In this document: piece by piece, positions 5,744 to 49,879 of the stretch
Position numbering within the stretch: position 1 is the first letter of the stretch
Layout: each line of letters begins with the position of its first letter
Source of the DNA: Altererythrobacter sp. C41
GTDB lineage: Bacteria > Pseudomonadota > Alphaproteobacteria > Sphingomonadales > Sphingomonadaceae
Assembly: GCF_016803135.1 (NCBI RefSeq)
Contig: NZ_JAEVFE010000006.1
Span: 1-64,000, forward strand
Direction of reading: 5' to 3'
Length of the DNA: 64,000 nucleotides
The notes under the pieces: generated by a model
Seen by the model: the letters and a program-made list of their open reading frames with translations, nothing else
What the model was told of the DNA's origin: nothing
The model's database searches: none
Made by a program: the position numbers and the translations under genes

Positions 5744-5771
5744 AAAAAGGGCCCGGACGCGCCGGGCCCTT
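5744..5771 (-). terminator. Intrinsic terminator of the BON-domain gene
   Basis: AAGGGCCCGG (5747-5756) and CCGGGCCCTT (5762-5771) form a perfect 10-bp stem with a five-base loop. On the minus strand the stem runs into TTTTT (5748-5744), so it terminates the leftward BON gene. It may also help end the convergent DUF2059 transcript, although there is no U-run in that direction. Confidence 0.85.
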
Positions 5772-5794
5772 CGCGTTGCAATGGCGGAGGTGGA

Positions 5795-6670: not shown

Positions 6671-6890
6671 TGGTCTCTCCTGAAGTTCTCGGGGAAGCTC
6701 CGGCGCGCCGCCTGGGGGGACGGCCGCGTCGCCCTGTTGCATGAAACCAATGCGCGAGCGGGCGGATCGTTGCCCGGCCGGGCGCATGCGGACCGCGCTT
6801 CGGCGACGGCATGTGGTACCGTCGCCGGAACCTTTCGCATCGCGCAGGAATCTGGTGCAGTGGAGGCCATGCACGATCGTTGCTCCGCAC

Positions 6891-11889: not shown

Positions 11890-12558
11890 CTAGTTCGGGA
11901 TCTCCCAGCGAACGGTGCTGGAGTAGTTCCCCGCAACCTCGTCACCGTTGCCGTTCGTCGCCGGACGGAAGCGGGCGCGCCGTTCGATCAGGCTGCAAGT
12001 CGCTTCCTTGAGTTCCGACGGAGCCGAGCCGCCGGTGATCGAGCACGATTCGACGCGGCCGTTTGCTCCCACACGCACGGTGAACGAAGCGGTGCCGGTG
12101 TATTCGCGGTTGATCCAGCTGCTGCGATAGTCCGAGGTCGTAACCCAGCTACCGGGATTGTTCCGCGGCTCGGGGTTCTTCGGCGGGAACCGCGGCGGCG
12201 GCGGGGGCGGGGGAGCCGGCGGGGCCGGCGGCGGCACGCGCAGCACGGGCGGTGCGGGCGGCGGAATCGTCGGCTGCGTGCGGATCGGCGGCGGAGCCGG
12301 CGCGATACTGATCGGCGGCGGCGGTGCGACCGGCGGCGGCGGCGCGGTGTCGGGTTCCGGCGGCGGCGGCGGTTCGTCTTCCGGCTCGGGTGGCGGCGGC
12401 TCCTCGATATCCACCGTCGTCACGCGTTCGACCACCTGGGTAACCGCCTCATAGGCGAGACCGGTGATCAGCGCATATCCGAGCAGGATATGGATAACCG
12501 CCACTATGACCAGGGCGACGACCCGGTTTCCGCTCATTTGTTGGTCAGCGTAGGCCAT
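11890..12558 (-). CDS. tonB: Energy transducer TonB
   Basis: A 222-residue protein with a short cytoplasmic start, one signal-anchor helix (VVALVIVAVIHILLGYALI), and a periplasmic spacer of about 90 residues made mainly of proline with Glu and Ala. The C-terminal TonB domain contains YTGTASFTVRVGANGRVESC and FRPATNGNGDEVAGNYSSTVRW. It transmits proton-motive force from ExbB/ExbD to TonB-dependent receptors such as the one at 58570. It heads the leftward operon tonB-exbB-exbD-exbD. The presumptive promoter lies in 12559-12898. No Fur box could be called with confidence. Confidence 0.93.
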   Translation of the reverse strand: MAYADQQMSGNRVVALVIVAVIHILLGYALITGLAYEAVTQVVERVTTVDIEEPPPPEPEDEPPPPPEPDTAPPPPVAPPPPISIAPAPPPIRTQPTIPPPAPPVLRVPPPAPPAPPPPPPPRFPPKNPEPRNNPGSWVTTSDYRSSWINREYTGTASFTVRVGANGRVESCSITGGSAPSELKEATCSLIERRARFRPATNGNGDEVAGNYSSTVRWEIPN

Positions 12559-12898
12559 TCAGTCGCATCACTCCATCGTCTCTCGCCGAGGGTAGCCCCG
12601 GCGATTCTCCTCACGACAAGCAAATCCCTTGCCAGAGGGCAATCCCAAATGTCCACCCTGCCGGCCGACTTCGAAAAACGCGAAGGCCGATGGGCCCAGG
12701 CGCCGCGAGGCCAGCATGGGCCTGTCTGCCGCGCATCATGTTGTCTGTTGCGGCAAACTGCCGCGAGCTTTAGCTTCGATGCCGAGGGCGCGCAAACGCT
12801 TTATCGGTTAACTGCGAATTCACGATCGCAAGAGTGAATGGGAACGGAACGACGCAAGGCATCGCGCATTGCGAAAAATGCCCCAAAACTGGAATTTT
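12559..12898. other. Intergenic region with divergent promoters of tonB and a secreted-protein gene
   Basis: No credible gene is seen in these 340 bases. The stretch must hold the promoters for the leftward tonB operon and the rightward gene at 12899. It contains a perfect inverted repeat GCGGCA-aac-TGCCGC (12750-12764), which could be an operator, and a GC-rich imperfect palindrome around 12690-12725. There is no U-run, so these are not terminators. Confidence 0.5.
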
Positions 12899-13741
12899 AT
12901 GGCGGATATGCAGAAACTCACCAAGCTTACGCTCACGCTCGCGGCGGGCCTTTCGGCATTGGCCGCGCCGGCCGCCGCGCAGCCGGCTCCGGCGCCCAAT
13001 GCGCCGACTTATGCCGATCTGGTGGACCTCGCGGACCCGGCCGATCTGGTGATCCGCGCGCAGATTCGCGACCAGGCCCTGCTCAGGCCCGAACGCGCTC
13101 CGGGCGTGCGCCCCGGTTACGGGCGGCTCTATGTCGAGGCGCGTACGCTCGCGCTGATCGCGGGTTCGGAGCCGATCGGCGAATCGATCCGCTACCTGGT
13201 CGACGTGCCGCTGGACGAGGACGGCGATCCGCCCAAGCTGAAGAAGCAGGAGGTGATCCTGTTCGCCAGATCGGCGGGCCGGCCGGGCGAGATCCAGCTC
13301 ATCGCGCCCACCGCCCAGTTGCCCTGGAGCGAAGCGCTCGCGGGCAGATTGCGCCCCGTCCTGGCGGAACTGTCGGCTGCCGACACGCCGCCTTCGGTCC
13401 TCGGCGTGCGCGACATTCTCTCGATGCCGGGCAACCTCGCGGGGGAATCGGAGACCCAAATGTTCCTCAATACGGACGGCGACGGGCCGGTCTCGATCAC
13501 CGTCGTGCGGCGTCCGAACATGGCGCCGGTGTGGGGAGTCTCGTGGACCGAGATCGTCGACCAGGCCGCGCGACCGCCGGCGAAGGACACGCTCGCCTGG
13601 TACCGGATCGCTTGCTTCCTGCCCGACGATCTCCCGGCCGACGCCAACCTCGCGCAGGACCCGGCCTCCCGCGCGCAGGCGGAGGAGGACTTCCGCTTCG
13701 TGCAGCAGAGCCTCGGGCCCTGCCGGCGCAACCGCAGCTAG
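12899..13741 (+). CDS. Secreted protein of unknown function
   Basis: A 280-residue protein with a Sec signal peptide (QKLTKLTLTLAAGLSALAAPAAAQ, cut after AAA). The mature part starts with a proline/alanine stretch, then YADLVDLADPADLVIRAQIRDQA, and is a mixed alpha/beta protein with no motif I recognise; a C-terminal Cys (SLGPCRRNR) may pair with that in RIACFLPDD. The start is uncertain: ATG at 12899 (MADMQK) or 12908 (MQKLTK) both give a good signal peptide. Homologues are expected in Sphingomonadales, but no function is known. It stands between tonB and hom as a single gene. Confidence 0.6.
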   Translation: MADMQKLTKLTLTLAAGLSALAAPAAAQPAPAPNAPTYADLVDLADPADLVIRAQIRDQALLRPERAPGVRPGYGRLYVEARTLALIAGSEPIGESIRYLVDVPLDEDGDPPKLKKQEVILFARSAGRPGEIQLIAPTAQLPWSEALAGRLRPVLAELSAADTPPSVLGVRDILSMPGNLAGESETQMFLNTDGDGPVSITVVRRPNMAPVWGVSWTEIVDQAARPPAKDTLAWYRIACFLPDDLPADANLAQDPASRAQAEEDFRFVQQSLGPCRRNRS

Positions 13742-13830
13742 CGCGCGCCCAAGCGAAACTGGTTCCCATGCCGCCGCCTCGCGGGTTAGGGGCGGCGCCA
13801 TGAAACGCGTCGCCAACAAACGCCGCCGCC

Positions 13831-15141
13831 ATGGCTGAGCCGCTGCGCATCGCGCTGGCCGGGCTCGGCACAGTGGGGGCGGGCGTGATCCGCCTGCTCG
13901 AAACCAACGCCGCGCTGCTGCGTGCCCGCTCCGGGCGCGAGCTGCAGATCGTCGCAGTCAGCGCGCGCGAGCGCCACAAGAACCGCGGCGTCGACCTCTC
14001 CTCCTTCGCCTGGGTCGACGACATGGCGGAGCTGGCCGCGCGCGACGATGTCGACGTCGTGGTGGAGCTCGTCGGCGGGTCGGACGGGCCAGCGCTGGCC
14101 CTGGCGCGCCGGGCGATCGGCTCGGGCAAGGCGCTGGTTACGGCGAACAAGGCGATGATCGCGCACCACGGTGCCGAACTTGCTGGCGCCGCCGAGCAGG
14201 CCGGCATCGCGCTCAAGTTCGAAGCCGCGGTCGCGGGCGGCATTCCGGTGGTCAAGGCCCTGCGCGAAGGCGCGGCCGCGAACGCCATCGGGCGCATCTA
14301 CGGCATTCTCAACGGCACTTCGAACTACATCCTCTCGACCATGGAGGCGACCGGCGCCGGCTTCGACGAGACGCTGGCCGAGGCGCAGAGGAAGGGGTTC
14401 GCAGAGGCCGATCCCGCGTTCGACATCGAAGGCACCGACGCCGCGCACAAGCTCGCGATCCTCGCTGCGATCTGCTTCGGCGCCGAGGTCGATTTCACCG
14501 GGGTGACTTGCGAGGGCATCACCCGCGTGCGGGCGGAGGACATCGCCCGCGCCGACACGCTCGGCTACGTCGTGCGACTGATCGGCATGGCGGATCTGGA
14601 AGCGGGGGAGGACGGTGCGACGGCCCTGCTCCAGCGGGTCAGGCCGTGCCTGGTACCCAAGGGCCACCCGCTCGCGCACGTCACCGGAGCGACCAACGCG
14701 GTCGTGGCCGAGGGCAATTTCTCGGGCCGCCTGCTGTTCCAGGGCGCCGGGGCGGGTGCGGGACCGACCGCGAGCGCGGTCGTTGCCGACCTGATCGACA
14801 TCGCCCGCGGAGAAATCGGCGCGCCGTTCTCCATCCCTTCGGCCGAGATAGCGCCGATGCCGCGCGCCGAGGCTGGACACCGCACCGGCCGCACTTACCT
14901 GCGCTTCACCGTCGCCGACCGTCCCGGGGTGCTGGCCGAGATGACCGCCGCGATGCGCGACGCGGGCGTCTCGATCGAAAGCCTGATCCAGCAGGGCCGG
15001 CAGGAGGAAGGCGGCGAGGTCCTCGTCGCGATGGTCGCGCACGAGGGGCCCGAGCGGAACGTACAGCACGCACTGGAGCTCCTGCGCGGCTCCGACAGCT
15101 TCACCGCGCCGCCGCTGTCGATGCAGATCCTCGGCGACTGA
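13831..15141 (+). CDS. hom: Homoserine dehydrogenase
   Basis: Reduces aspartate semialdehyde to homoserine, the branch point to threonine, isoleucine and methionine. The 436-residue length matches the long, ACT-containing form. The NAD(P)-binding loop GLGTVGAG is at residues 11-18, the homoserine-binding block has GGIPVVKALREG and LNGTSNYIL, and the C-terminal ACT domain (from about 355) reads LRFTVADRPGVLAEM. The ACT domain normally mediates feedback inhibition by threonine. There is no clear Shine-Dalgarno; ATG at 13831 fits the family N-terminus. The downstream neighbour on the opposite strand ends three bases away. Confidence 0.96.
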   Translation: MAEPLRIALAGLGTVGAGVIRLLETNAALLRARSGRELQIVAVSARERHKNRGVDLSSFAWVDDMAELAARDDVDVVVELVGGSDGPALALARRAIGSGKALVTANKAMIAHHGAELAGAAEQAGIALKFEAAVAGGIPVVKALREGAAANAIGRIYGILNGTSNYILSTMEATGAGFDETLAEAQRKGFAEADPAFDIEGTDAAHKLAILAAICFGAEVDFTGVTCEGITRVRAEDIARADTLGYVVRLIGMADLEAGEDGATALLQRVRPCLVPKGHPLAHVTGATNAVVAEGNFSGRLLFQGAGAGAGPTASAVVADLIDIARGEIGAPFSIPSAEIAPMPRAEAGHRTGRTYLRFTVADRPGVLAEMTAAMRDAGVSIESLIQQGRQEEGGEVLVAMVAHEGPERNVQHALELLRGSDSFTAPPLSMQILGD

Positions 15142-15144
15142 GCG

Positions 15145-15681
15145 CTATTGCGGCGGCGGGTCGGCGGCAGGTTCCGGCTCGCTCGCGGTCTGCTCCTCCG
15201 GCTCCCCATCGTAGCCGCGCGGTGCGAGCCCGCGCCCGACGCGTGCCGCATCGGAGCCGGGCGGCGTCTCGGGCAGTTCCTCGAAGTCGATCATGTAGGC
15301 GGGAGGCGCCGGGCAGGGCGGGATCACGCACATGCCGGAGATGGTCGCGGGCCCCTTGAAAATTCCCGGTCCGGACACGTCTGGCGCCTTGGGATCGCCC
15401 TTGTTCATCGTCGCCGCCGCGTATTCGTTCTCCGCGTCCTCGTCGGAGCGGACGCGGAATTGCGACTGCTCCTCCAGCCGCGCACAGACCACGATCTCGT
15501 CGCCTTCGGGCTGCTCGCAATCGGGTTGCGGCGGCGCGGGGGGCGGCGGGCCGTAGGCGTCGCGGGTCGCCTCGAACGCCTGCTCCACCGGATCGGTCAC
15601 GCCGGGGTCCGGGTCGCTCGTCTGCGCCCCGGCCGGTGCGGCGACGAGGCAGAGGGCAAGCGCCAGGTGGTTTCTCGACAT
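15145..15681 (-). CDS. Secreted proline-rich protein of unknown function
   Basis: A 178-residue protein with signal peptide MSRNHLALALCLVAAPAGA (cut before QTSD). The mature chain is rich in Pro, Glu and Asp, with the motif EIVVCAR found near the start of many small sphingomonad exported proteins, and four to five cysteines (CEQPEG, VVCAR, GMCVIPPCP) that could make two disulphides. It starts divergent from glpX and ends convergent with hom. No enzymatic motif is seen. The family is conserved in the order as far as I can judge, but its job is unknown. Confidence 0.6.
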   Translation of the reverse strand: MSRNHLALALCLVAAPAGAQTSDPDPGVTDPVEQAFEATRDAYGPPPPAPPQPDCEQPEGDEIVVCARLEEQSQFRVRSDEDAENEYAAATMNKGDPKAPDVSGPGIFKGPATISGMCVIPPCPAPPAYMIDFEELPETPPGSDAARVGRGLAPRGYDGEPEEQTASEPEPAADPPPQ

Positions 15682-15737
15682 TCCCGCTCCCGCTGTCTAA
15701 GCGCGCTTCCAAGCACTCCCGGAGGACTGAATCCAGT

Positions 15738-16721
15738 ATGAATAGCAAGAATCCGCCCGCGGGCTCGCAGCTCGATCGCGTCCTGGTGCTTGAACTGGTC
15801 CGCGTCACCGAAGCCGCCGCGATCGCCGCGAGCGAGCTGATCGGGCGCGGCGACGAGAAGGCGGCCGATGCCGCCGCGGTCGAAGCCATGCGCCACGCCT
15901 TCGACCAGCTCGAGATCGACGGGACCGTGGTGATCGGCGAGGGCGAACGCGACGAGGCGCCGATGCTCTACATCGGGGAGAAAGTCGGTGGAGCGCCGGG
16001 CAAGGGGCCGAAGATCGACATCGCGCTCGATCCGCTCGAAGGGACCACCATCACCGCCAAGGCAGGCCCCAATGCGCTCGCCGTGCTGGCCGCTGCGGAA
16101 AAGGGCTGCCTGCTCAACGCGCCCGACACCTACATGGACAAGCTCGCGGTCGGTCCGGGGTATCCCGAGGGGATCATCGATCTCGCCAAGACCCCGACCG
16201 AGAACGTCTGCGCGGTGGCCGAGGCCAAGGGCGTCGAGCCCAAGGACATCATCGTCTGCGTGCTCGACCGGCCACGCCATGCGGAGCTGATCGCCGAGCT
16301 GCGCGGACTCGGCTGCGGCGTGGTGCTGATCGGCGACGGCGACGTGGCGGGCGTGATCGCGACGACCGATCCCGAAACCACGATCGACATGTACATGGGC
16401 CAGGGCGGTGCACCCGAAGGCGTGCTCGCGGCCGCCGCGCTGCGCTGCGTCGGCGGGCAGTTCAACGGCCGGCTGGTGTTCCGCAACGAGGACGAGAAGC
16501 GCCGCGCGGCCAAGTGGGGTATCGAGGACCTCGACCGGATCTACAAGCTGGAGGATCTGGCCAAGGGCGACTGCATCTTCGCCGCGACCGGCGTCACCTC
16601 AGGATCGCTGCTCGAAGGCGTGAAGCGCCTGCGCGGCGGCAGGATGACGACCGAAAGCGTCGTCATGCGCGCCAGCAGCGGCACGGTGCGCTGGATCAAG
16701 GGCGAACATCGGCTCCCCTAA
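15738..16721 (+). CDS. glpX: Class II fructose-1,6-bisphosphatase (GlpX type)
   Basis: Dephosphorylates fructose-1,6-bisphosphate in gluconeogenesis. The 327-residue length is right for GlpX. Diagnostic are TVVIGEGERDEAPMLYIGE and the metal/phosphate block IDIALDPLEGTTITAK, with KLAVGPGYPEG and a C-terminal ATGVTSGSLLEGVKR. The class II fold is a Mg/Mn-dependent lithium-sensitive phosphatase. GGAGG (about 15721) precedes ATG 15738, and homology also begins there, so the longer open frame is ignored. It is not adjacent to glycerol genes here, so a housekeeping gluconeogenic role is likely. Confidence 0.95.
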   Translation: MNSKNPPAGSQLDRVLVLELVRVTEAAAIAASELIGRGDEKAADAAAVEAMRHAFDQLEIDGTVVIGEGERDEAPMLYIGEKVGGAPGKGPKIDIALDPLEGTTITAKAGPNALAVLAAAEKGCLLNAPDTYMDKLAVGPGYPEGIIDLAKTPTENVCAVAEAKGVEPKDIIVCVLDRPRHAELIAELRGLGCGVVLIGDGDVAGVIATTDPETTIDMYMGQGGAPEGVLAAAALRCVGGQFNGRLVFRNEDEKRRAAKWGIEDLDRIYKLEDLAKGDCIFAATGVTSGSLLEGVKRLRGGRMTTESVVMRASSGTVRWIKGEHRLP

Positions 16722-16846
16722 AGATCCTCCTTATTTGCTCCTGCAGCGAAAACGGGGAGGATCGGGTGCCCCCTGTTGCAATCGCGTGACGCCGGGCTAA
16801 GCGAAGCGGACCGATTCCCGCCGCAGCAACGAAGGTACCCCGCGCG

Positions 16847-17782
16847 ATGAAGATCATGTCCGGCAACTCGAACCTGCCGCTCGCCCGCGCGGTCGCCGCC
16901 TATCTCGAGATGCCGCTGACAGACGCCAGCGTCCGCCGCTTCGCCGACGAGGAGGTTTTCGTCGAGATCCACGAGAACGTGCGCGGCGAGGATGTCTTCC
17001 TGATCCAGCCGACCAGCTTCCCGGCGAACGACAACCTGATGGAACTGCTGATCTGCATCGACGCGCTCAAGCGCGCCTCGGCCACGCGGATCACCGCGGT
17101 CGTGCCTTACTTCGGCTATGCCCGGCAGGACCGGAAGCCGGGTCCGCGCACGCCGATCTCGGCCAAGCTGGTCGCCAACCTGATCACCCAGGCGGGCGCC
17201 GACCGCGTGCTCGCGGTCGATCTCCATGCCGGGCAGATCCAGGGCTTCTTCGATATCCCGACCGACAACCTCTACGCCGCACCGGTCATGGCCGCCGACA
17301 TCCAGGCGCGCTACGGCGACCGCGACCTGATGGTCGTCAGCCCCGACGTCGGCGGCGTGGTCCGCGCCCGTGCGCTGGCCAAGCGGCTCGACAACGCGCC
17401 GCTGGCGATCGTCGACAAGCGCCGCGACCGCCCCGGCGAGAGCGAGGTCATGAACATCATCGGCGATGTGAAGGGCCGCCACTGCATCCTGATCGACGAC
17501 ATCGTCGATTCGGGCGGTACGCTGTGCAACGCGGCGCAGGCGCTGCTCGACCAGGGCGCGACCTCGGTCGCGGCCTATATCACTCACGGCGTGCTTTCGG
17601 GCGGCGCGGTGGCGCGGGTGGACGGCTCGACGCTGACCGAGCTGGTCATCACCGACACGATCCGCCCGACCGACGCGGCGCAGGATTCGGACAAGATCCG
17701 TATTCTCACCGTTGCCCCGCTGATCGGCGAAGCCGTTCGCCGCATCGCCGACGAAAGCTCCGTCAGCTCGCTTTTCGACTGA
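16847..17782 (+). CDS. prs: Ribose-phosphate pyrophosphokinase
   Basis: Makes PRPP from ribose-5-phosphate and ATP for purine, pyrimidine, histidine and NAD synthesis. A 311-residue class I enzyme. The N-terminal [19 protein letters not shown], the catalytic flexible-loop region [11 protein letters not shown], the ribose-phosphate loop and the PRPP-binding [11 protein letters not shown] are all present. hisN starts one base after its stop, so both are probably co-transcribed, and PRPP feeds the histidine pathway. Confidence 0.97.
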
Positions 17783-17783
17783 C

Positions 17784-18590
17784 ATGGCGACGGACAGCGA
17801 TATCGCGCTCGCCAACCGGCTGGCGGACGCGGCGGGCGAGGCGATCCGCCCGCTGTTTCGCGGCGAATGGGCCGAGGAACGCAAGAGCGACGCAACGTTC
17901 GTGACCGAAGCCGACCGCGCCGCCGAGGCGGCCATGCGCGCGATCATCGAGAGCGAGCGGCCGGGCGACGGGATCATCGGCGAGGAATATGGCAACCGCA
18001 ACCCGGCCGCCGCGCGCCAGTGGGTGCTCGACCCTATCGACGGCACGACCAGTTTCATCGCCGGGCGGCCGATCTTCGGCACGCTGATCGCGCTGATGGA
18101 AGATGGCTGGCCGGTGCTGGGCGTGATCGATCAGCCGGTCCTGCGCGAACGGTGGGTCGGACGTGTCGGTCATGGCACAACCTTCAACGGCAAGCCTGTC
18201 CGTTCGGCGCCCTGTCCGGAGCTTTCCAACGCGGTGCTCGGCACGACCAGCCCCCACTGTTTCTCGGGCGAGCAGGTCGACGCCTTCATGAGCCTCGCCA
18301 AGGCGGTGGCCGAGCGCAAGATCGTCTACGGAGGCGACTGCTACAGCTACGGCCTCGTCGCCTCGGGCCATATGGACCTGGTGTGCGAGGCGGGGCTGCA
18401 ACTGCACGATTTCGCCGCGCTCGTGCCGGTGGTCGAGGGAGCCGGCGGAACCATGTGCGACTGGCAAGGCGAACCGCTCAACGCTCATTCGACCGGTGAA
18501 GTGCTCGCGATCGGCGATCCCGCCCGGCTGGAGGACGTGATCGAGGCGATGGCCGGCATTGCGCACGGGGCAGAGCACTCGCACGGTTAG
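17784..18590 (+). CDS. hisN: Histidinol-phosphatase, inositol-monophosphatase family (HisN type)
   Basis: A 268-residue Mg-dependent phosphatase of the IMPase fold. GEEYG (about residues 66-70) and the metal-binding LDPIDGTTSF (82-91) are followed by a C-terminal HDFAALVPVVEGAGG. The family includes the HisN histidinol-phosphatases of actinobacteria and alphaproteobacteria, which lack the HisB-type enzyme. Its position directly behind prs favours a histidine-pathway role, but a generic inositol-phosphatase or CysQ activity cannot be excluded from sequence. There is only one base between prs stop and this start. Confidence 0.82.
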   Translation: MATDSDIALANRLADAAGEAIRPLFRGEWAEERKSDATFVTEADRAAEAAMRAIIESERPGDGIIGEEYGNRNPAAARQWVLDPIDGTTSFIAGRPIFGTLIALMEDGWPVLGVIDQPVLRERWVGRVGHGTTFNGKPVRSAPCPELSNAVLGTTSPHCFSGEQVDAFMSLAKAVAERKIVYGGDCYSYGLVASGHMDLVCEAGLQLHDFAALVPVVEGAGGTMCDWQGEPLNAHSTGEVLAIGDPARLEDVIEAMAGIAHGAEHSHG

Positions 18591-18626
18591 CCAAATGCTA
18601 AGCCCTGCGCGCTAATCCTCGCGCGC

Positions 18627-20651
18627 ATGGCGACCACACCTTTCGAAGGCAACCTCGTTCCCGCGCCCGGAGCGCTGCGCGCGCGCAGCGCATGGGCGCG
18701 CCTCGTCGTTGCGTTCCCGTTCGCGCTCATGGCGCTCGTCTCGCTGATCGAGCTGGCGCTCGCCGATCGCAAGTATGGGCTGTTCACCGGCGGTTTCGGC
18801 CAGTCGCGTGCGGTCGATACGCCGGGCGAGATCGCCTTGTTCTTCCTCGGCTATATTGCCGCACAGGCCGTGATCGCGCTGGCAGGCTGGGCGCTTGCCC
18901 TGCGTCTCGCGCGGCGCGGCCCCGCCTGGGCGACCTGCTTTGCCTTCGCGCTCCTGAACGGCGCACTGTTCTGCGGGTTGCTTGCCGCGCAGTACCAGCT
19001 CCATTCCTACTTCAGCGACGCGGTCGGCTTCGCGCTGCTCAAGCAGCTCGGCGGCGGGAGCCTGGTCGATGCGATCCTGTTCGGGCTGAGCGAGATCGGC
19101 GTGGCCCTGATCGCGTTGCTGGCCGTCGTCATCGGCGCATGGATCGTGTGGAGATCGCTTGCCTGGCTGCTGCCGCGAAACCTGCCGCGCCCGACCGCGC
19201 CGCGACGGGCGGTGTGGGTGGCAGTGATCGCCGGATTTCTCCTTGCCGCCTTCGCCATCCCGCGCACCGGAAGCGACGCCGCCTTCGGACTCAACCGCAC
19301 GCTCGCATGGCAGGCGCTGACGGGGACGCTCGATCTCGCAAGCGACGTCGACCGTGACGGCTACGGCCTGTTCGGCATCCAGCACGACACCGCGCCGTTC
19401 GATGGTAGCCGCCATCCGCTGGCGCTCGATGTCCCCGGCAACGGGGTGGACGAGGACGGCTATGGCGGTGATCTGCGCCTGGTTCCACTCGCTGCGCCGC
19501 TGGGCCAGCAGGTGTTTACCGGCGATCGCCCGCATGTCGTGATCGTGGTGATGGAATCGACCCGCGGCGACGTGCTCGGCAAGCGGATTGGCGGCAAGCC
19601 GGTCGCGCCCAACCTCGAGGCGATCGCGGCAGCGGGCAGCGCGGTCTATCCCGCTTACAGCCATGTCGGCTTCACCACCGAATCGCTCAAGTCGATCTTC
19701 TCCGGCCAGCTCGCCCCGCGCGAGGGCGATCCCTCGCTGTTCCGCGATCTGAAGGCGAGCGGCTATCGCATCGGAGTTTTCTCGGGTCAGCCTGAGGATT
19801 TCGGCGGGATTTCGGAGACGGTCGGCATGCGCGAGAGCGCCGAGGTCTTCGTCGATGCAGAACGCTTGCGGAACAAGCGGGCGTTCGACTTCGCCGCGCA
19901 GGGCAGCCTGCTGGTCGACGAAAGCCATTTGCTCGCCGCCTTCGATCGTACGCTCGGTGCGGAGGACTGGCAGGCGCGGCCGCACTTCGTCTATTTCAAC
20001 TTCCAGTCGCCGCATTTCCCCTACGATCACGAAGGCGTGCCGGCGCGCATGGTCGATACTCCGATCGAGCGCGGCGCGATCGGCGCGGACCGGGCGGAGG
20101 ACGTGCAGGCGACCTACTGGAACGCAGTGGCCAACGCCGATGCCTGGCTGGGCGAGGTCGTGCAGCGGCTCAAGGCGAAGGGCGTGTGGGAGAACACCTT
20201 GCTGATCGTCACCGGCGATCATGGCGAGGATCTGTTCGAAGATGGCTTTCTCGGTCACGGCCATGTGATCAACGCCCGCCAGTTCGGCACGATGCTGGTC
20301 GCCAACCGCCCCGGCATTCTGCCGCCCGCGCCAATCGCACTGGCGGACTATCGCGCTATCCTGACGGCCGCACTGCGGAGCGAGCCGCCCGGAGTGCCTG
20401 CCGCGCCGCCTTTCCTCCATATCGGCCCGCTCGATACGCCGACGGCAATCGGGCTCGCCGGGCCGGGGGGAGAACTCGCCAGCCTGCGCCTCGACACCGG
20501 CGAGGCCTGCCTCGTCGAACGCGGCGAATGCGCACCGCATGGCACGTTCACGGGGGCCGCGAAGACGCGAATCGAGGCGTTGATCGCCCGCTGGGGCTCC
20601 GAACGCTGGCGTGCCCATGAGCGCGCTGAAGGAACTTCGGCGGTGGAATGA
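18627..20651 (+). CDS. Membrane-bound sulfatase/LtaS-like hydrolase-transferase
   Basis: A 674-residue protein. About five hydrophobic helices occupy residues 25-215, followed by a short linker and a sulfatase-family alkaline phosphatase-like domain. The domain holds HVVIVVMESTRGD with the nucleophile position, FTTESLKSIFSG, HFVYFNFQSPHFPYDH and LIVTGDHGEDLFEDG (metal ligands). The membrane-plus-sulfatase layout is that of lipoteichoic acid synthase and phosphoethanolamine/phosphoglycerol transferases; in Gram-negative bacteria these usually modify LPS or periplasmic glucans. The substrate cannot be named. A DxDxDGYG-like repeat (DVDRDGYG ... NGVDEDGYGGD) between helices and enzyme may bind calcium. 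Confidence 0.8.
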   Translation: MATTPFEGNLVPAPGALRARSAWARLVVAFPFALMALVSLIELALADRKYGLFTGGFGQSRAVDTPGEIALFFLGYIAAQAVIALAGWALALRLARRGPAWATCFAFALLNGALFCGLLAAQYQLHSYFSDAVGFALLKQLGGGSLVDAILFGLSEIGVALIALLAVVIGAWIVWRSLAWLLPRNLPRPTAPRRAVWVAVIAGFLLAAFAIPRTGSDAAFGLNRTLAWQALTGTLDLASDVDRDGYGLFGIQHDTAPFDGSRHPLALDVPGNGVDEDGYGGDLRLVPLAAPLGQQVFTGDRPHVVIVVMESTRGDVLGKRIGGKPVAPNLEAIAAAGSAVYPAYSHVGFTTESLKSIFSGQLAPREGDPSLFRDLKASGYRIGVFSGQPEDFGGISETVGMRESAEVFVDAERLRNKRAFDFAAQGSLLVDESHLLAAFDRTLGAEDWQARPHFVYFNFQSPHFPYDHEGVPARMVDTPIERGAIGADRAEDVQATYWNAVANADAWLGEVVQRLKAKGVWENTLLIVTGDHGEDLFEDGFLGHGHVINARQFGTMLVANRPGILPPAPIALADYRAILTAALRSEPPGVPAAPPFLHIGPLDTPTAIGLAGPGGELASLRLDTGEACLVERGECAPHGTFTGAAKTRIEALIARWGSERWRAHERAEGTSAVE

Positions 20652-20679
20652 GCGCCGCGCATGGTCCACTAGGGCGCGC

Positions 20680-21429
20680 ATGACAGCATCGGCATCGTTG
20701 GAAGGGCGGATCGCCCTCGTCACCGGCGCAGCGCGCGGGCTCGGATACGCGATTGCCCGGCGGCTTGCCGCGGGGGGAGCGGCCGTCTGGCTCAACGGGC
20801 GCGACCCCGCCGCGCTCGACGCGGCGGCGGAGCGGATCGGCGATTTGGCGCGGCCGATCGCCTTCGATATCGCCGACGACGCGGCGAGCGCGGACGCCTT
20901 CGCGCGGATCGAGCGCGAGGGCGGGCTCGATATCCTCGTGAACAATGCCGGAGCCCGTGACCGGCGCGGGATGGCGGAGCTCGACCGGGAGGCCGTGCGC
21001 GCCATGCTGGATACCAATCTGGTCGCGCCTTTCGATCTCGCGCGCCGCGCCGCACCATTGATGCGCGCGCGCGGTTACGGGCGGATCGTCAACATCACCT
21101 CGATCGCCGCCGAGATCGCGCGCGGCGATGCGGCCTATACCGCGAGCAAGGGCGGACTTGCCGCTTTGACCCGCGCATTCGCGGCGGAACTCGGCGGCGA
21201 CGGCATCACCGTCAACTCGGTCGCGCCGGGCTATTTCGCGACCGATGCAAACGCGGAGATGGTCGCCGATCCCGCGATCGCCGCGCATCTCGCCCGGCGC
21301 ACATCGCTCGGCCGCTGGGGCAAGCCGCACGAGATCGCAGGCGCGGTCGCCTTCCTCGCTTCGCCCGAGGCATCCTATGTCACCGGGCAGACGCTCGCGG
21401 TCGACGGCGGCTATCTCGCCCACTTCTGA
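20680..21429 (+). CDS. SDR-family oxidoreductase (FabG/gluconate-5-dehydrogenase-like)
   Basis: A 249-residue classical short-chain dehydrogenase. It has the TGAARGLG dinucleotide-binding loop, NNAG (NNAGARDR), the catalytic S-x(n)-YxxxK (ITSIAAEIARGDAAYTASKGG), and a C-terminal AVDGGYLAHF. It ends with the AVDGGY typical of FabG-like enzymes. The exact substrate is open; gluconate 5-dehydrogenase or 3-oxoacyl-ACP reductase-like roles are possible. ATG at 20680 follows AGGG; an upstream ATG overlapping the sulfatase end is an alternative start. It lies close downstream of the sulfatase gene. Confidence 0.82.
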   Translation: MTASASLEGRIALVTGAARGLGYAIARRLAAGGAAVWLNGRDPAALDAAAERIGDLARPIAFDIADDAASADAFARIEREGGLDILVNNAGARDRRGMAELDREAVRAMLDTNLVAPFDLARRAAPLMRARGYGRIVNITSIAAEIARGDAAYTASKGGLAALTRAFAAELGGDGITVNSVAPGYFATDANAEMVADPAIAAHLARRTSLGRWGKPHEIAGAVAFLASPEASYVTGQTLAVDGGYLAHF

Positions 21430-21552
21430 AAGCTTGCATTCCGCGCCGATTTCGCTAGGGGCGCGTGCTTCACCGACACGTGTTTCATGTGCCGGCCTGG
21501 CGACAAGGGCTGCCAGGGCTGGTTCGACGTGTCTCTGTTACAGGAGATGAAA

Positions 21553-44946: not shown

Positions 44947-45537
44947 TCAGGTGCGTGCGAGCACTCCGCAGGCGAGACGCGAGCCGGCATTGCCGGTGGG
45001 ATCGGTGCGATAGTCGTCCGCATCAGCGTGCACGACCACTGCAGTGCCGTCGGCGTCGAACAGCGAGTCGATCACGCTCTGGTCTCCGCTGCCCAGGTCG
45101 GCCGTGGTCGACGCAGTGCCATCGGCAGCGACTTCGAGGTTGGGGAGGTCGCCCATATGGCTCCCGGCGGGATTCTCGTGGCCATGCTCCTTGCCGGCGG
45201 GATTGAGGTGCCCGCCCGCGGAGGTGAAGTCGGGCGGCGTGCATTCGCCCGTCGTGTGCAGATGGAAGCCATGGGTCCCTTCCGGAATTCCCGTGACCGC
45301 GATCTTCAGCGAAAGATTGCCGCCATTGGACAGCAGTTCGACCGTCCCGGCAGGCGTGCCGTCGGCGAGCGCCAGCGAGGCCGATCCGACCGTCCCGCTC
45401 GAGGGAGTCTCAGTCGCTGCAGTATCATTCGAAGAAGTCTCGCTCGATGCGTCCTGTTCCGCGGTATCCGAAGCGGGAGAGCATGCGGCAAGCGCGACCA
45501 CGGCGGTCAGGGCGATGGGGAAAGATAGGCGAATCAT
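44947..45537 (-). CDS. sodC: Periplasmic Cu/Zn superoxide dismutase lipoprotein
   Basis: A 196-residue lipoprotein. The lipobox LAAC (after a short helix) is followed by an acidic Ser/Thr-rich linker (EQDASSETSSNDTAATETPSS) and then a Cu/Zn-SOD domain. It has copper ligands in GFHLHTTGEC, the zinc loop GGHLNPAGKEHGHENPAGSHMGD, and the catalytic Arg in GNAGSRLACG. It scavenges superoxide in the periplasm, anchored to the membrane. It is downstream of ompA on the same strand but behind a terminator, so it has its own transcription unit. Confidence 0.93.
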   Translation of the reverse strand: MIRLSFPIALTAVVALAACSPASDTAEQDASSETSSNDTAATETPSSGTVGSASLALADGTPAGTVELLSNGGNLSLKIAVTGIPEGTHGFHLHTTGECTPPDFTSAGGHLNPAGKEHGHENPAGSHMGDLPNLEVAADGTASTTADLGSGDQSVIDSLFDADGTAVVVHADADDYRTDPTGNAGSRLACGVLART

Positions 45538-45572
45538 GAAAGGCTCCTGTCTTGCGAGGACCCTAGCTTAAC

Positions 45573-45602
45573 AAAAAAGGGGCCGGATTGCTCCGGCCCC
45601 TT
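45573..45602 (-). terminator. Intrinsic terminator of the ompA gene
   Basis: AAGGGGCCGGA (45577-45587) and TCCGGCCCCTT (45592-45602) form an 11-bp stem with loop TTGC. On the minus strand the stem runs into six T. It ends the leftward ompA transcript. Confidence 0.93.
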
Positions 45603-45629
45603 CCATTGAAATCGTCGCTTTCGCGAGAC

Positions 45630-46715
45630 TTACATGCCCGAACCCGGACCGTAGGTGATTTCCACCCGGCGGTTCTGGAGTTCGCGCACGCCGTCGGCGG
45701 TCGGAACGCGCGGCTGCGATTCGCCGAACGCTTCGCTCGAGATCCGCGCGTCGGGAACACCTCGGCCGCTGAGGTACGAACGGACCGACTCGTTACGACG
45801 CTCGGCCAGACCCATGTTGTAGGTCTGCGTACCCGACCGGTCGGTGTGACCGGCGAGCATGACCGAAGCCGTGCCGCAGTTGGTGTACGCCGACACCGCG
45901 TTGTCGAGAATGGTGGCTGCTTCGGGCGTGATGTCCGACTTGTCCCATTCGAAGAACACGATGTACGGCCCCTGGTTGCACACCGGCGGCGGAGGCGGCG
46001 GAGGCGGCGGGGGCGGCGGAGGCGGCGGGGGCGGCGGCGGAGGCGGCGGGGGCGGCGGAGCCGCGGGTTCGCCACCGAAGTTGAACGTCAGCGTGCCCAG
46101 GATCGAGTGCGACCGGAACCGCGTGTCCACTTCGCCACCGTCCGCGTCGACAAGCGTGACGTCGTCGGCGTTGAAGAAGCGATAGCGCAGACCGACGTCG
46201 ATGCTGTCGGTCAGCGGAGCGCGAATGCCGGCGAGAGCCTGCCACGCGAAGCCCGTGTCCGAATCGTCGAGCACGTCGACACCACCAACCGTCGCGTCGA
46301 GGCTGGTGCGCGCAACACCGGCACCGGCACCGACGAAGCCCTGCAGGCCGTCGTCTTCACCGAAGTCGGCCAGCGCGTTCAGCATGAACGCGAGGGCGCT
46401 GGCGTCACCACCGGCGCCGAACTGGTCGCCCTCGGTGGTCAGCGTGTCGATCGACGCGGAGCGATAGCTGGCGTCGGCTTCGAGGCGGAAGCCACCGAAG
46501 TCGTAACCAACCACACCACCGAAGTCGTAGCCTTTGTCCATGTCGGCGCCGGCGGTGTCGATGACCTCGCCGTCGGCATCGACGATGTCGAAGTCGAGAT
46601 CTTCGACGATCATCGGGCCGCCTTGGCCTTCGATGTACCACTGGCCGTCACGTGCGAGGGCCGGCGATGCAAGGGCCGTAGAGGCCATCGCCAATCCAAT
46701 GACGAGTTTCCGCAT
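45630..46715 (-). CDS. OmpA-family outer-membrane protein with polyproline linker
   Basis: A 361-residue protein. It has a signal peptide (MRKLVIGLAMASTALASPALA), an eight-strand beta-barrel resembling the OmpA/OmpX group (aromatic girdles, GYDFGGVVGYDFGGFRLEAD), a linker of 25 consecutive prolines at 45984-46058, and an OmpA-like peptidoglycan-binding domain. That domain has YIVFFEWDKSDITPEA, LAGHTDRSGTQ, and SGRGVPDARISSEAFGES. It ties the outer membrane to the cell wall. ATG 46715 starts the signal peptide; a long open frame continuing leftwards (towards 47732) belongs to the neighbouring capsid relic. Such long runs of proline codons are unusual and may need EF-P. Confidence 0.92.
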   Translation of the reverse strand: MRKLVIGLAMASTALASPALARDGQWYIEGQGGPMIVEDLDFDIVDADGEVIDTAGADMDKGYDFGGVVGYDFGGFRLEADASYRSASIDTLTTEGDQFGAGGDASALAFMLNALADFGEDDGLQGFVGAGAGVARTSLDATVGGVDVLDDSDTGFAWQALAGIRAPLTDSIDVGLRYRFFNADDVTLVDADGGEVDTRFRSHSILGTLTFNFGGEPAAPPPPPPPPPPPPPPPPPPPPPPPPPVCNQGPYIVFFEWDKSDITPEAATILDNAVSAYTNCGTASVMLAGHTDRSGTQTYNMGLAERRNESVRSYLSGRGVPDARISSEAFGESQPRVPTADGVRELQNRRVEITYGPGSGM

Positions 46716-46908: not shown

Positions 46909-47370
46909 TCAATCGGTGCGGGGTAAAATTCCTGCGAGGCGGAGGGTTTCGATAAGGTTATCAATCGCAGCGCGCGCCTCGGCATCCACGGTGGACCCTC
47001 CCGCGGGGCTCTCCGGGGCGACCGCCCGCACCCATTCGCCTTGGTGAAGCGCGGCCTGCCGTGCCGCCCTGTCGAACACTCGCATGCCGTCCTGCGGCGC
47101 AGCGAACAGCCAGGCTCCCGCCTGGCGCCCGGCGAGCTGGCCTGCGTGCTCGTTCCACTCGCCGGTCGGTGCAGGGCCGACGATCCAGACTTCGCCCTCC
47201 GTGGGCGCAGGGGGCGGATCGTTCGCCTCGCCCTCGACCGCGCAGTGCAGGAGCATGTCGAGAAGCGCATGCGATTCGTTGACGATGAATTCTTTCTGGG
47301 ATTGCGCCGGAAAAAGATGGCGCAGACCGAAGCGCGGGGTCGCGGATTCGAAAGTGACGGGCTGTGACAT
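46909..47370 (-). CDS. DUF2793 protein, GTA/prophage-derived
   Basis: A 153-residue protein matching the DUF2793 family (PF10983), found near phage-like and gene-transfer-agent head genes. The opening TPRFGLRHLFPAQSQKEFIVNESHAL and the motif VGPAPTGEWNEHAGQLAGRQAGAWLF are characteristic. Its start at 47370 lies exactly at the point where capsid homology ends, so a deletion seems to have joined the two. The reading frame itself is intact. Usually other structural genes separate capsid and DUF2793, so its presence here marks a shrunken cluster. Function is unknown. Confidence 0.8.
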   Translation of the reverse strand: MSQPVTFESATPRFGLRHLFPAQSQKEFIVNESHALLDMLLHCAVEGEANDPPPAPTEGEVWIVGPAPTGEWNEHAGQLAGRQAGAWLFAAPQDGMRVFDRAARQAALHQGEWVRAVAPESPAGGSTVDAEARAAIDNLIETLRLAGILPRTD

Positions 47371-48213
47371 CGGCAGTCTTGAGCTTGCGTACTTCGGCCA
47401 GCGTGGACGAGTTCATGGACGAGGCTCGCCCCCTGCTGGTGCCCCGCCTTGAGGGTGTGCACCAGCACGATCAGCGCCAGGTCGGGATCGCTCCCGAAGC
47501 CCGTGGCATCGCCGCTGCGGACATATTGCAACGTGCCGAACGCCCGCGCGCCATCGTCGACGGCCGACGAAGGTGCGGCGAGAAAGCCCGCCGGCTGGTT
47601 CGCGCCGGTGCCGTTGACGAACGCGGCCCCTTCCGCGCGGGCGAACTCCATCGCGATCTCGCTGGCCAGCCAGGCCTCGACGTCGAAACGCCGCGTCGTC
47701 GAGCATAGCCTGACTCGCCGCCGGGTTGGCATAGAGCTCGCCGCTCGGCGGGGCGATTTCGGTGAACTGCGGCGTCGCGGTCTCGGGCCGCCCGGCGGTC
47801 TCGCTGACCCAGCCCGAGGCGGTGCCGCCGGTGCTCACCAGCTTGCGGTAGCCGCTCGTGCCGGTCTGCACGACTTGCGCGATCGAGCGGATCGGGCTGA
47901 TATCGGTGAGGGCGCGGGCGATCTCCGCGTCGATCTCGCGCGGCACGGCGTAGCCGCCGTCGGCCGGAACGCCGGTCGAAAGCGACTTGACCTCGGCGAT
48001 GGAGCCGCGGCGCAAGTATCCGTCGACGAAGCCCTTGACCTCGGGGTTGTCATTCGCGCCGGAAATGGCGGGCCGCTGGGCGGCACGGCCGATTTCGTCG
48101 ACATCGGTGCGCAGTGCCGCGACATCGGTCTCGGTCTTCTCCTGCCGTGCGACGAGATCGAAGCTTTCCTCGAGCGAGTCGGCGGGGGCGGTGGGCGTAA
48201 CGGGCATATCCAT
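47371..48213 (-). pseudogene. HK97-type major capsid protein, frameshifted and truncated
   Basis: The capsid precursor starts at MDMPVTPTAP (48213) and reads through GFVDGYLRRG, KSLSTGVPADGGYAVPREID and LYANPAASQAMLDDAAF, all HK97-capsid hallmarks. A +1 insertion in an A-run (plus strand 47686-47688) then shifts the frame; FDVEAWLASEIAMEFARAEG continues in the next frame to LKAGHQQGAS. A second +1 event near 47417-47418 restores homology as MNSSTLAEVRKLKTAD in a third frame, ending at 47371 where the DUF2793 start begins. About the last third of the protein is missing. So it is a true pseudogene of an RcGTA g5-like capsid. Two single-base changes and a deletion are seen directly; the order of events is inferred. 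Confidence 0.85.
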
Positions 48214-48245
48214 CGGGCAATTCACCTTTCTTCGGGCTGACAAAA

Positions 48246-48274
48246 AATAGCCCCCTCCTCTTCAGAGGAGGGGG
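48246..48274 (-). terminator. Terminator-like hairpin inside the GTA relic
   Basis: CCCCCTCCTC (48251-48260) and GAGGAGGGGG (48265-48274) form a 10-bp perfect stem with loop TTCA. On the minus strand the stem is followed by TATTTTTTG, so transcription from the protease would stop before the capsid. Intact GTA operons are read through, so this hairpin may itself be a mark of decay or an insertion. Confidence 0.6.
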
Positions 48275-48275
48275 G

Positions 48276-48665
48276 TCAGATGATCAGATGCACCCGCGCC
48301 GCGTGCTGCAGCGGATGCGTGACGAGGCTCACCTCGAACAGCTCGACATCCTCCAGCACGCGGCCCGCGGGTTCGTGCCGGAAGCGCCGCGCGCGGTAGC
48401 CGAAGCTCAGCCCGCTCACCGCGCGCCGGCGGAGCATCGCAGAGGCGCGACCGTCCGGGTTGTCGAGTGCGGCGATCACGCGCAGGCCGCGCGCGTCCTC
48501 CGCGATCCGTTCGACCCAGCCGATCCGCTGCTCGGGCCGGTGCTGCCAATAGAGCGGCAGCGGCTCCTGCCGCTCGGCAAGCGTGCGGGCGAAGGCGCCG
48601 GGCCGGATCGTATCGCGGCTCGCATCCGCGCGGCCGAACAGTGCCGCGTAACCGGCCAGCCGCAT
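48276..48665 (-). CDS. HK97-family prohead protease (GTA g4-like)
   Basis: A 129-residue phage prohead protease. FAGYAALFGRADASRDTIRPGAF at the start, with WQHRPEQRIGWVERI (catalytic His) and the later LSFGYRARRF (catalytic Ser) and EVSLVTHPLQHAARV (Glu), is the U35 protease pattern. It normally trims the capsid delta domain; here the capsid gene downstream is broken, so the enzyme has no substrate in the relic. The frame is intact at 129 residues. The start (48665) overlaps the preceding small gene by one base (TGATG). Confidence 0.88.
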   Translation of the reverse strand: MRLAGYAALFGRADASRDTIRPGAFARTLAERQEPLPLYWQHRPEQRIGWVERIAEDARGLRVIAALDNPDGRASAMLRRRAVSGLSFGYRARRFRHEPAGRVLEDVELFEVSLVTHPLQHAARVHLII

Positions 48666-48973
48666 CACCGCAGTACCTCGGTCAATCCAAGCCGCACGGC
48701 GATGCCGATCAGCACCAGCGCCAGCACCCCGCGTACGAGCCACGCCAGCGCCGCGCGCCACACGCTCGCCTTGGCGTCGCGCCAGGCCTGGAGCAGCTTG
48801 CGCAGCTCGTCGAGATCGTCGCGCGCATCGGGATCGGCGAGCCCGGTACGCTGAAGCGCGCGGTCGGCGCCGAGATCGGTCGCTTCTTCGACGATCGCGC
48901 GCAGCGTCACCAGCTCGCAGCCGCCTTCCTTCGCCTCGGCGATCAGCCGGGCGATCATGTCCTCACGGATCAT
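48665..48973 (-). CDS. DUF6127-type small GTA-associated protein
   Basis: A 102-residue protein beginning MIREDMIARLIAEAKEGGCE with a C-terminal hydrophobic helix (AALAWLVRGVLALVLIGIAVRLGL). It resembles the small DUF6127 family, usually next to the GTA prohead protease in sphingomonads. It overlaps the protease start. Its function is unknown; one membrane helix and an Asp/Glu-rich N-terminus are all that can be seen. Given the decay around it, it may be only residually expressed. Confidence 0.6.
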   Translation of the reverse strand: MIREDMIARLIAEAKEGGCELVTLRAIVEEATDLGADRALQRTGLADPDARDDLDELRKLLQAWRDAKASVWRAALAWLVRGVLALVLIGIAVRLGLTEVLR

Positions 48974-49117
48974 GTTCGTTTCTCCAAAAAATTGCTGATC
49001 TCGATGCGCTGGGCTTCGATGATCAGGCATGGGCCAATCCCGTGCGACATTCCGACTATCGGCGGTTCTCGCTGAAGGTGCAGGTGAGCTGGCTCACCCC
49101 CATGCATTTTTTGCTGC

Positions 49118-49396
49118 TTACTCCAGCTCGAGGATGGCGCGCTTCTCATCCGCAGAGAGAGACTCGGCCGATGAAACCTGCGTCCACAGCCGCTCCCGAT
49201 CCTCGGCCAGCGCGGGCACCCGGTCGAGGTCGACCGCCAGCGCGGCCTCGGGGAACCACGGTGCCAGCCCCTCACAGGCCGGCGAGGATCTTGCCCACAG
49301 CGCGCGGTTGGCCTCGCGGCAGTTGGCGTAGGTGTTGTCGCCTAGCAGCCCGAGCAGCATCGGCGGCACCCCGAAGGCGAGCGCGATGTCGCGAGC
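49118..49396 (-). pseudogene. Phage portal protein, C-terminal fragment
   Basis: About 90 residues of the portal (GTA g3-like) survive: RDIALAFGVPPMLLGLLGDNTYANCREANRALW, then LAPWFPEAALAVDLDRVPAL and a stop after ILELE. The usual segment after REANRALW (LTLLPLAG-type) is reduced to nine residues. A neighbouring frame encodes GKILAGL, so small compensating indels seem to have occurred. The N-terminal three quarters are missing. At 49396 it runs into another gene's 5' end, a deletion scar. It cannot make a working portal. Confidence 0.8.
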
Positions 49397-49512
49397 TCCT
49401 GCAGGAAATAGGTCCGCCAGTGCTTGTCGAGAATGCCTTCGCCACCTCGCGCCTTCTGCGTGGGCGAGATCCTCACCTGTTTGCGCAGGGTGTTCGTACG
49501 GCGTTGAGCCAT
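49342..49512 (-). pseudogene. N-terminal fragment of a phage-type small protein (terminase-small-like)
   Basis: ATG 49512 starts MAQRRTNTLRKQVRISPTQ, with ARGGEGILDKHWRTYFLQELA following. After LQELA (at 49393) the sequence switches to portal DNA, read out of frame until a stop at 49342. The basic N-terminus resembles the small terminase-like or HTH proteins encoded at the head of sphingomonad GTA/prophage clusters (KARGGEGVLDKHWRK-type), but I am not certain of the family. The junction shows that a deletion removed the rest of this gene, the large terminase and most of the portal. A hairpin AAACGGGCGG/CCGCCCGTTT (49554-49589) lies upstream. Confidence 0.5.
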
Positions 49513-49633
49513 GATGTCGCTCCCGGTTCGATCTGTGCGACGGCCCGAGACGCAAACGGGCGGCGCCGGAAGCCCGGCACCGCCCGTTTCGAATCACACC
49601 ATCGCGATATTTTGCTTTTCTAACCAAAGAGCG

Positions 49634-49879
49634 TCACGATGTCAATAAAAAAGTGCCAAACAGGTTATTTCGGGTTTGTTTTGCGCGGAGGCGCAGAGGT
49701 ACGACGCACCCGCCCGCCTTGAGCAAGGCTCCGCGCGCGCCATGGAAATAGAAATAGCCGTCGAGTTCCGGCACCAAGGGCTCGATCAACTCGATCGCAG
49801 CCTCGACGCCGTGCACTCTGGCCACTGGCACCGCACGATTGAGCATCATCACCGGTGCCGGCGTGGTTGCTGGATCGAA
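49634..49879 (-). pseudogene. C-terminal fragment of a DUF6596-type sigma factor
   Basis: Reading leftwards from 49879, FDPATTPAPVMMLNRAVPVARVHGVEAAIEL and then LDGYFYFHGARGALL resembles the C-terminal DUF6596 region of ECF sigma factors (SPVVALNRAVAVAE-type, ending RGDLL). The sigma domains 2 and 4 are absent. The frame then drifts into CVVPLRLRAK and stops at 49634. It abuts the end of the ROK kinase at 49882 and so marks the left edge of the catabolic island. Evidence is by remembered family pattern. Confidence 0.6.

What the first reader, a model, noticed from the sequence alone, without database searches (positions are those of the whole stretch)
46909..49512. A gene-transfer-agent head cluster frozen in the middle of decay
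On the minus strand the order is small terminase-like protein, portal, DUF6127, prohead protease, capsid and DUF2793, which follows RcGTA-like clusters of sphingomonads. Two genes (DUF6127, protease) keep full frames, one (capsid) has point frameshifts and truncation, and two (small protein, portal) are fused by a deletion. The tail genes are absent. Seeing every stage in 2.6 kb is unusual; GTAs are normally kept intact by selection or lost cleanly.
Basis: partly seen in the sequence, partly recalled or inferred. Interest (0 to 1): 0.7.

Follow-up and report, generated by a model that had tools for sequence, protein, structure and literature searches.

The report
Freshly broken gene-transfer-agent cluster
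This stretch is the recently broken remains of a domesticated virus-like DNA-transfer machine (a gene transfer agent); such wrecks are common in this bacterial family, and one identical breakage recurs in many of its genera, which I cannot yet explain.

Summary
On the minus strand at 46909-49512 lie 41 codons of a small terminase, a portal tail, full DUF6127 and prohead-protease frames, a capsid with two +1 shifts cut near codon 290 of 384, and a full DUF2793 (tail-fibre) frame. Two large deletions removed the large terminase and the tail genes. Clusters complete by gene content stand at the same place in four of seven held genomes of the genus (Pelagerythrobacter); the window's genome has no other capsid.

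The interpretation needs correcting. Broken pieces are as constrained (dN/dS 0.135) as in intact sisters: a young collapse, not a slow decay caught halfway. Nor is it unusual: all three genus members without a complete cluster are relics with different breakpoints, and 28 of 43 capsid-less genomes in a 149-genome family sample keep the GTA gene DUF2793. The kind is known in print.

Following the relics outward gave a surprise. Another deletion (TerL codon ~157 joined to DUF2793 codon ~20) has the same junction in 25 of 397 family genomes, 15 genera. Flanks look native, microhomology is mostly absent, and a single clade is rejected. A travelling null allele or a site-specific event remain open.

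The parts
49590..49671 (-). promoter-like block upstream of the cluster (TTGACA ... GGTTAG, then ATCGCGAT)
   Evidence: conserved in all 7 genus members, complete and relic alike; that it is the promoter is inference
49390..49512 (-). first 41 codons of the small terminase (terS), rest deleted
   Evidence: 73% identity over 41 aa to terS of G006, E 5e-17
49391..49396 (-). junction of deletion 1 (~2.7 kb: rest of terS, whole terL, portal codons 1 to ~277)
   Evidence: blastn against G006, 5401 then 8086; about 3 nt (CGC) shared at the ends, read
49118..49396 (-). C-terminal remnant of the portal gene with 25-nt and 2-nt deletions
   Evidence: Phage_portal 224-320; alignment with five relatives
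48665..48973 (-). DUF6127 gene, full frame (102 aa from the start shared with relatives)
   Evidence: PF19622 8.9e-26; 84% identity to G002
48276..48665 (-). prohead protease, full frame (129 aa)
   Evidence: PF04586 1.2e-23; 82% identity to G002
47372..48213 (-). major capsid gene, codons 1 to ~290 of 384, with +1 insertions near 47688 and 47418
47364..47372 (-). junction of deletion 2 (rest of capsid and the connector, tail and baseplate genes; about 9.5 kb in G005)
   Evidence: blastn against G005 and G006; both ends shown, 1-2 nt shared at most
46909..47370 (-). DUF2793 (GTA tail-fibre family) gene, full frame, 153 aa
   Evidence: PF10983 1.8e-24; naming as tail fibre from PMC10883770
45630..46715 (-). 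OmpA-family gene, the usual right-hand neighbour of the GTA locus

Best explanation
The locus is the genus's chromosomal gene-transfer-agent (RcGTA-like) head-tail cluster, inactivated recently in this lineage by two large deletions plus four small indels. It can no longer make particles: no large terminase, no complete portal or capsid, no tail genes. The conserved promoter-like block remains and may still drive the remnant. The open genes are most simply leftovers not yet hit. The cell has become a GTA non-producer (shown: the gene losses; inferred: the phenotype, and that it may still receive GTA-borne DNA).
For: Clusters with the same order at the same place, beside OmpA, in G002, G003, G005 and G006. 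The only capsid matches in the genome are these two pieces; no TerL match, no tail-sheath TIM match. Window-lineage dN/dS: broken pieces 0.135 (95% 0.075-0.222; 46 synonymous, 18 nonsynonymous changes, 276 codons), DUF6127 plus protease 0.185 (0.071-0.388), DUF2793 0.156 (0.050-0.360). The same broken-gene pieces in the intact lineages: G005 0.185 (0.058-0.448), G006 0.203 (0.098-0.361).
Against: DUF6127 alone is higher on the window lineage (0.295, 0.068-0.808) than on G005 (0) or G006 (0.152), though with wide limits, and two nonsynonymous against one synonymous change in portal segment A (0.71) hint at some relaxation. dN/dS is Nei-Gojobori without transition bias, on few codons and a partly unresolved tree. 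Whole-genome searches of the window's genome covered capsid, TerL, two TIM families, DUF2793 and DUF6127, not every GTA gene. Production was not assayed.
Confidence: 0.92

Rival explanations
1. The breaks are assembly or sequencing errors and the cluster is intact.
For: Low dN/dS in the broken pieces is also what an intact gene would show; the two +1 insertions lie in short runs (TTT, CC); the genome is a 30-contig draft.
Against: Two deletions of about 2.7 and 9.5 kb inside a 166-kb contig, and no TerL or tail-sheath match anywhere in a 99.95% complete genome. Relatives G001 and G004 have their own partial losses.
Confidence: 0.04
2. It is a remnant of an unrelated prophage or a second, redundant GTA copy.
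For: Gene families are shared with phages; six phage records match parts of the stretch, annotated there as capsid or portal.
Against: Same genomic place and gene order as the genus GTA; G002's cluster carries RcGTA g15-type Rcc01698_C and DUF2460; no other copy found; phage matches cover at most 14% of the query.
Confidence: 0.03
3. The full frames (DUF6127, protease, DUF2793) are kept for a function outside the GTA.
For: DUF6127 is still a full frame in the far more eroded relic of G001; DUF2793 is found in 28 of 43 capsid-less family genomes, with a stop inside the matched domain in one.
Against: Their dN/dS on the window lineage is no lower than that of the broken pieces; DUF6127 on the G001 lineage is 0.26 with 16 nonsynonymous changes; DUF2793 lacks its start in several relics and most of itself in G001; some relics were found because they have DUF6127 or DUF2793.
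Confidence: 0.1
4. Slow decay caught midway, as first read.
For: Genes are broken to different degrees.
Against: Pooled broken pieces show no relaxed constraint.
Confidence: 0.08

Closest known systems
RcGTA-like head-tail clusters of Alphaproteobacteria (Kogay et al. 2019, PMC6821227; passages read)
   Same: gene set and order terS, terL, portal, protease, capsid, connectors, tail tube, tape-measure-like, DUF2460, g13, g15, DUF2793 in the complete relatives (g13/g15 labels are mine, from position and Pfam)
   Different: the window keeps only three full genes and fragments of three
Pseudogenised GTA clusters in several alphaproteobacterial lineages (Kogay et al. 2024, PMC10883770; passages read)
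   Same: broken clusters, proposed there as recently emerged cheater lineages
   Different: the passages I saw name no loci or breakpoints; here breakpoints, constraint and a family tally are given
[quoted passage not shown] 2017; not held; known only from its citation in PMC6821227)
   Same: predicted there to be an RcGTA-like element, so probably the same one
   Different: could not be read, so overlap with the relic tally is unknown
Transformation asymmetry / chromosomal curing (PMC4774983, passages read; PMC5850275, start of abstract in a listing)
   Same: homologous import can favour short, deleted alleles, a possible route for the recurrent deletion
   Different: 'gene transfer agent' does not occur in the main text of PMC4774983

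Membership tests
RcGTA-like GTA cluster | ordered RcGTA-type gene set at one chromosomal locus | tested here: met
   complete relatives at the same place; window fragments in the same order
RcGTA-like GTA cluster | near-complete cluster (14 of 17 genes, criterion of PMC10883770) | tested here: not met
   three full genes plus three fragments
RcGTA-like GTA cluster | produces particles that package host DNA | not testable with these tools
   no assay; gene loss makes it very unlikely
pseudogenised GTA relic | disrupted genes orthologous to a complete cluster in close relatives | tested here: met
pseudogenised GTA relic | relaxed constraint after inactivation | tested here: inconclusive
   pooled w 0.135 (0.075-0.222) in broken pieces, no relaxation seen; inactivation may be too recent to show
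ordinary prophage remnant | integrase, attachment sites or phage regulatory genes nearby | not tested
   no dedicated search was made

The most novel reading that the evidence does not exclude
Outside the window, one GTA-null deletion recurs with the same junction across the family: TerL codon ~157 (QHSHA) joined to DUF2793 codon ~20 (AGQAQKE), in 25 of 397 genomes and 15 genera. Flanks look native to each genus from about 24 nt outward, the ends share no microhomology in 27 of 32 junction-free relatives, and one clade is rejected. Boldest reading: a single null ('cheater') allele that moves between species by recombination through the conserved blocks that abut it, or is held as a very old producer/non-producer polymorphism. 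GTA particles could carry the short null allele more easily than the ~14-kb complete one.
Probability: 0.35. Interest if true: 0.85.

Novelty: new member of a known kind. Interest (0 to 1): 0.5.

Why it matters
GTAs look like costly public goods, and how producers persist while non-producers arise is open (PMC10883770, passages). The window adds a very young loss with complete sister species for comparison, in a genus with 4 complete and 3 differently broken clusters: a natural series. The family-wide recurrence of one exact deletion would, if it is one travelling or balanced allele, make the spread of GTA non-producers directly observable; if it is a site-specific event, it would mean an unknown mechanism that switches GTAs off.

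Tried and rejected
Microhomology for the recurrent junction: 27 of 32 usable junction-free relatives (of 44 loci; two of the 32, G066 and G098, are themselves relics) share 0 nt at the exact cut, and the junction diagonal is at background. Inverted-repeat bridging: the duplex energy of the two ends ranks near the middle (median 0.43; 3 of 32 at or below 0.05). Foreign tract beside the junction: by eye none in G197/G069 and G007/G093; in G080/G141 mismatches look somewhat denser near the junction. Over all pairs the flanks look native beyond about 24 nt; nearer, the intact-intact control also loses the same-genus signal, so it cannot be judged. In one search the DUF2793 side was mis-registered; it was redone and one search's B rows are not used. 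Carriage on viral contigs (0 exact matches to a slightly narrower pattern) or plasmids (8 records match, none over 80% of the query): not supported. The two window junctions were not found in viral contigs, which says little. A TerL hit in G001 is an unrelated prophage by its ORFs. G001 first seemed GTA-free and was then found to be a relic. A first rpoB tree with two loci on the wrong strand was discarded. One search failed on a wrong BLAST option and was redone. In one search the G095 locus was scanned on the wrong strand; one search is used for it.

Full report
WHAT IS THERE. The window is 64 kb of a 166-kb contig of a 3.2-Mb draft genome, 99.95% complete. On the minus strand, from 49.67 to 46.91 kb, lie: a promoter-like block shared by all seven genus members; 41 codons of a small terminase (73% identical to that of G006); a C-terminal portal remnant; full DUF6127 and protease frames; a capsid with two +1 shifts, cut near codon 290; and a full DUF2793 frame. 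Deletion 1 removes about 2.7 kb (G006 5401 to 8086) and deletion 2 about 9.5 kb (G005 11918 to 21457). The ends share about 3 nt and 1-2 nt (read); the larger overlaps in the BLAST table include chance matches.

IT IS THE GENUS'S GTA LOCUS. Clusters with a complete gene set, as far as tested, stand at the same place, left of an OmpA gene and what look by eye like SOD and MFS genes, in G002, G003, G005 and G006; G006's is split by a contig end, and gene g14 was not examined in any. The G002 cluster holds a terS-type protein, Terminase_6, Phage_portal, tail tube, a tape-measure-like protein, DUF2460 and a g15-type protein (Rcc01698_C, Phage-tail_3), that is, an RcGTA-like head-tail cluster. The window's genome has no capsid match beyond the two broken pieces, no TerL match, no tail-sheath TIM match, and no GTA_TIM match, a family absent from all seven genomes.

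HOW OLD IS THE DAMAGE. Broken pieces were compared as separate in-frame segments. At codons where G005 and G006 agree, the window lineage has 46 synonymous and 18 nonsynonymous changes in the capsid and portal pieces (w 0.135, 95% 0.075-0.222, 276 codons). DUF6127 plus protease give 0.185 (0.071-0.388) and DUF2793 gives 0.156 (0.050-0.360). The same broken-gene pieces give 0.185 (0.058-0.448) on the G005 lineage and 0.203 (0.098-0.361) on G006. Against this, DUF6127 alone is 0.295 (0.068-0.808) and the 28-codon portal segment A 0.71 (1 synonymous, 2 nonsynonymous changes). Pooled, there is no trace of a neutral period: with a constrained value near 0.19 the upper bound leaves about 4% of the branch, with 0.10 about 14% (my arithmetic; Nei-Gojobori, no transition bias). 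The collapse looks young, and the open frames need no special reason.

NOT UNUSUAL. In the genus, 4 of 7 genomes have the complete set. G004 keeps terS, TerL, portal, DUF6127, protease, the 778-aa tail gene, g13, g15 and DUF2793 but has lost capsid to tape measure. G001 keeps the promoter block, a terS stub, a DUF6127 frame and the last 58 codons of DUF2793. The rpoB-region tree puts G000 and G001 with G005 and G006, and G004 with G002 and G003; since breakpoints differ, I infer three independent losses. Across 149 family genomes of at least 95% completeness, a capsid relative was found in 106, DUF6127 in 98 and DUF2793 in 132. Of the 43 without a capsid match, 28 keep DUF2793 (comparison of the lists). 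I fetched all 28: in 26 at least one more GTA gene or fragment lies beside it; the exceptions are G148 and G135, the latter at a contig end. The scan shows OmpA after DUF2793 in 22 of the 28. Split, truncated or stop-bearing capsids were also seen in G040, G042, G076, G102, G134 and G146 besides G000. Capsid matches include prophages, and several relics were chosen because a marker was present, so these are tallies, not rates. Kogay et al. 2024 already state that pseudogenisation and loss occur in several lineages and may mark cheaters (PMC10883770, passages).

AN UNEXPECTED REPEAT. Several relics from different genera ended at the same two points: TerL after ...QHSHA (codon ~157) and DUF2793 from AGQAQKE (codon ~20). 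A 33-base degenerate pattern made from six of these genomes, with up to 2 mismatches, found the junction in 25 of 397 family genomes, 15 of 96 genera (14 exact, 10 with one mismatch, 1 with two), those six included; the reversed control pattern found none. In 24 of the 25 a TerL piece ends at the junction, without stops in the matched stretch; in G346 only codons 108-155 match; in G169 terS runs directly into it. OmpA follows in the fetched stretch in 18 of 25. G130 is a single-contig genome, so assembly error is an unlikely general cause. Among the 28 relics of the smaller sample the junction is in 6 (G007, G079, G080, G084, G130, G149). Other TerL-DUF2793 fusions there have other ends: G121 and G077, and G073 lies close but does not match. 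The window's genus does not have the junction.

TESTS ON THE REPEAT. The comparison rows without the junction ('I', 44 loci) are mostly complete clusters but include relics such as G041, G066 and G098. TerL codons ~10-156 of junction rows group with congeners (for example G079-G140, G080-G141, G197-G069, G395-G016): 20 label changes against a shuffled mean of 19, at least 8 forced by well-supported branches (23 junction and 42 other rows). Holding the 23 junction rows as one clade is rejected (p-AU 1e-56; two long-branch rows dropped). The DUF2793 side agrees (20 changes, shuffled 20.5, at least 6 forced; 25 and 43 rows). Cross-genus junction-junction identity equals junction-other identity outside the searched pattern, to within 0.03 (TerL side, DUF2793 side). 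From about 24 nt outward junction rows resemble their own genus about as much as intact rows do; nearer, the data cannot decide. There is no microhomology at the cut in 27 of 32 usable relatives and no special pairing between the ends. The 20-nt bins that abut the cut on the kept sides are the most conserved of the 16 and 9 bins scanned (0.858 and 0.733). TerL pieces are as constrained among junction genomes as among others (median pN/pS, same-genus pairs with pS under 0.6: 0.36, n 8, against 0.36, n 5; mixed pairs 0.34, n 18). So the same junction keeps appearing in lineages that seem to have been functional until recently. Remaining readings: one allele moved by recombination or kept as an old polymorphism; a site-specific event of unknown kind; or a sampling effect that I have missed. 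Against transfer: between genera, exact runs of 20 nt or more within 60 nt of the cut occur in 66 of 489 pairs on the TerL side and 1 of 489 on the DUF2793 side, short for ordinary recombination; in g2, g31 and g79 the residues next to the junction match the genus, while in g11, g73 and g89 they differ from the congeners compared. On particle size: the abstract of PMC9632790 (listing) gives 5-15 kb packaged, so a complete ~14-kb cluster is not wholly beyond transfer.

LITERATURE. Searches for GTA with Sphingomonadales, pseudogene, loss, terminase, cheater, identical deletion and DUF2793 listed no paper whose title or abstract start reports a shared GTA deletion. One search listed 15 of 112 and 12 of 60 papers; the library holds open-licence PMC papers only, and the 2017 paper on the sphingomonad element is not held.

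VERDICT. The window finding is real, correctly identified and ordinary in kind: a very young GTA loss. Its value is as an entry to the recurrent identical deletion, which is the part a specialist would not expect.

Noticed in passing
L085-L109, junction near position 1500 of each locus: Same GTA deletion junction (TerL codon ~157 :: DUF2793 codon ~20) in 25 of 397 family genomes, 15 genera.
   Followed up: yes
L073 (G098), about 338-1070: TerL stops at the same residue (~157) but is followed by g10/tape-measure genes: same left end, other right end.
   Followed up: no
L017:10158-12494: A 778-aa tail gene of the complete GTA carries NCTSP_N and TIM-barrel_NCTSP (non-contractile tail sheath) with DUF2460, while GTA_TIM is absent from all seven genus genomes.
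   Followed up: partly
L026:5199-7331 (G001): Large terminase of an unrelated prophage has a long intein-like insertion in its ATPase half ('intein-like' by eye).
   Followed up: no
L039 and L084 (G007): Two GTA relics in one genome: a scrambled one near C1:597 kb and the recurrent-junction one near C1:1289 kb.
   Followed up: partly
window 45630-46715 and relatives: An OmpA-family gene follows DUF2793 in many complete and broken GTA loci: 22 of 28 relics, 18 of 25 junction loci.
   Followed up: partly
window 44947-46715 against 47413-48961: Flank genes are closest to G006 (OmpA dS 0.18) while the capsid is closer to G005 (dS 0.28 against 0.39), hinting at recombination within the locus.
   Followed up: no
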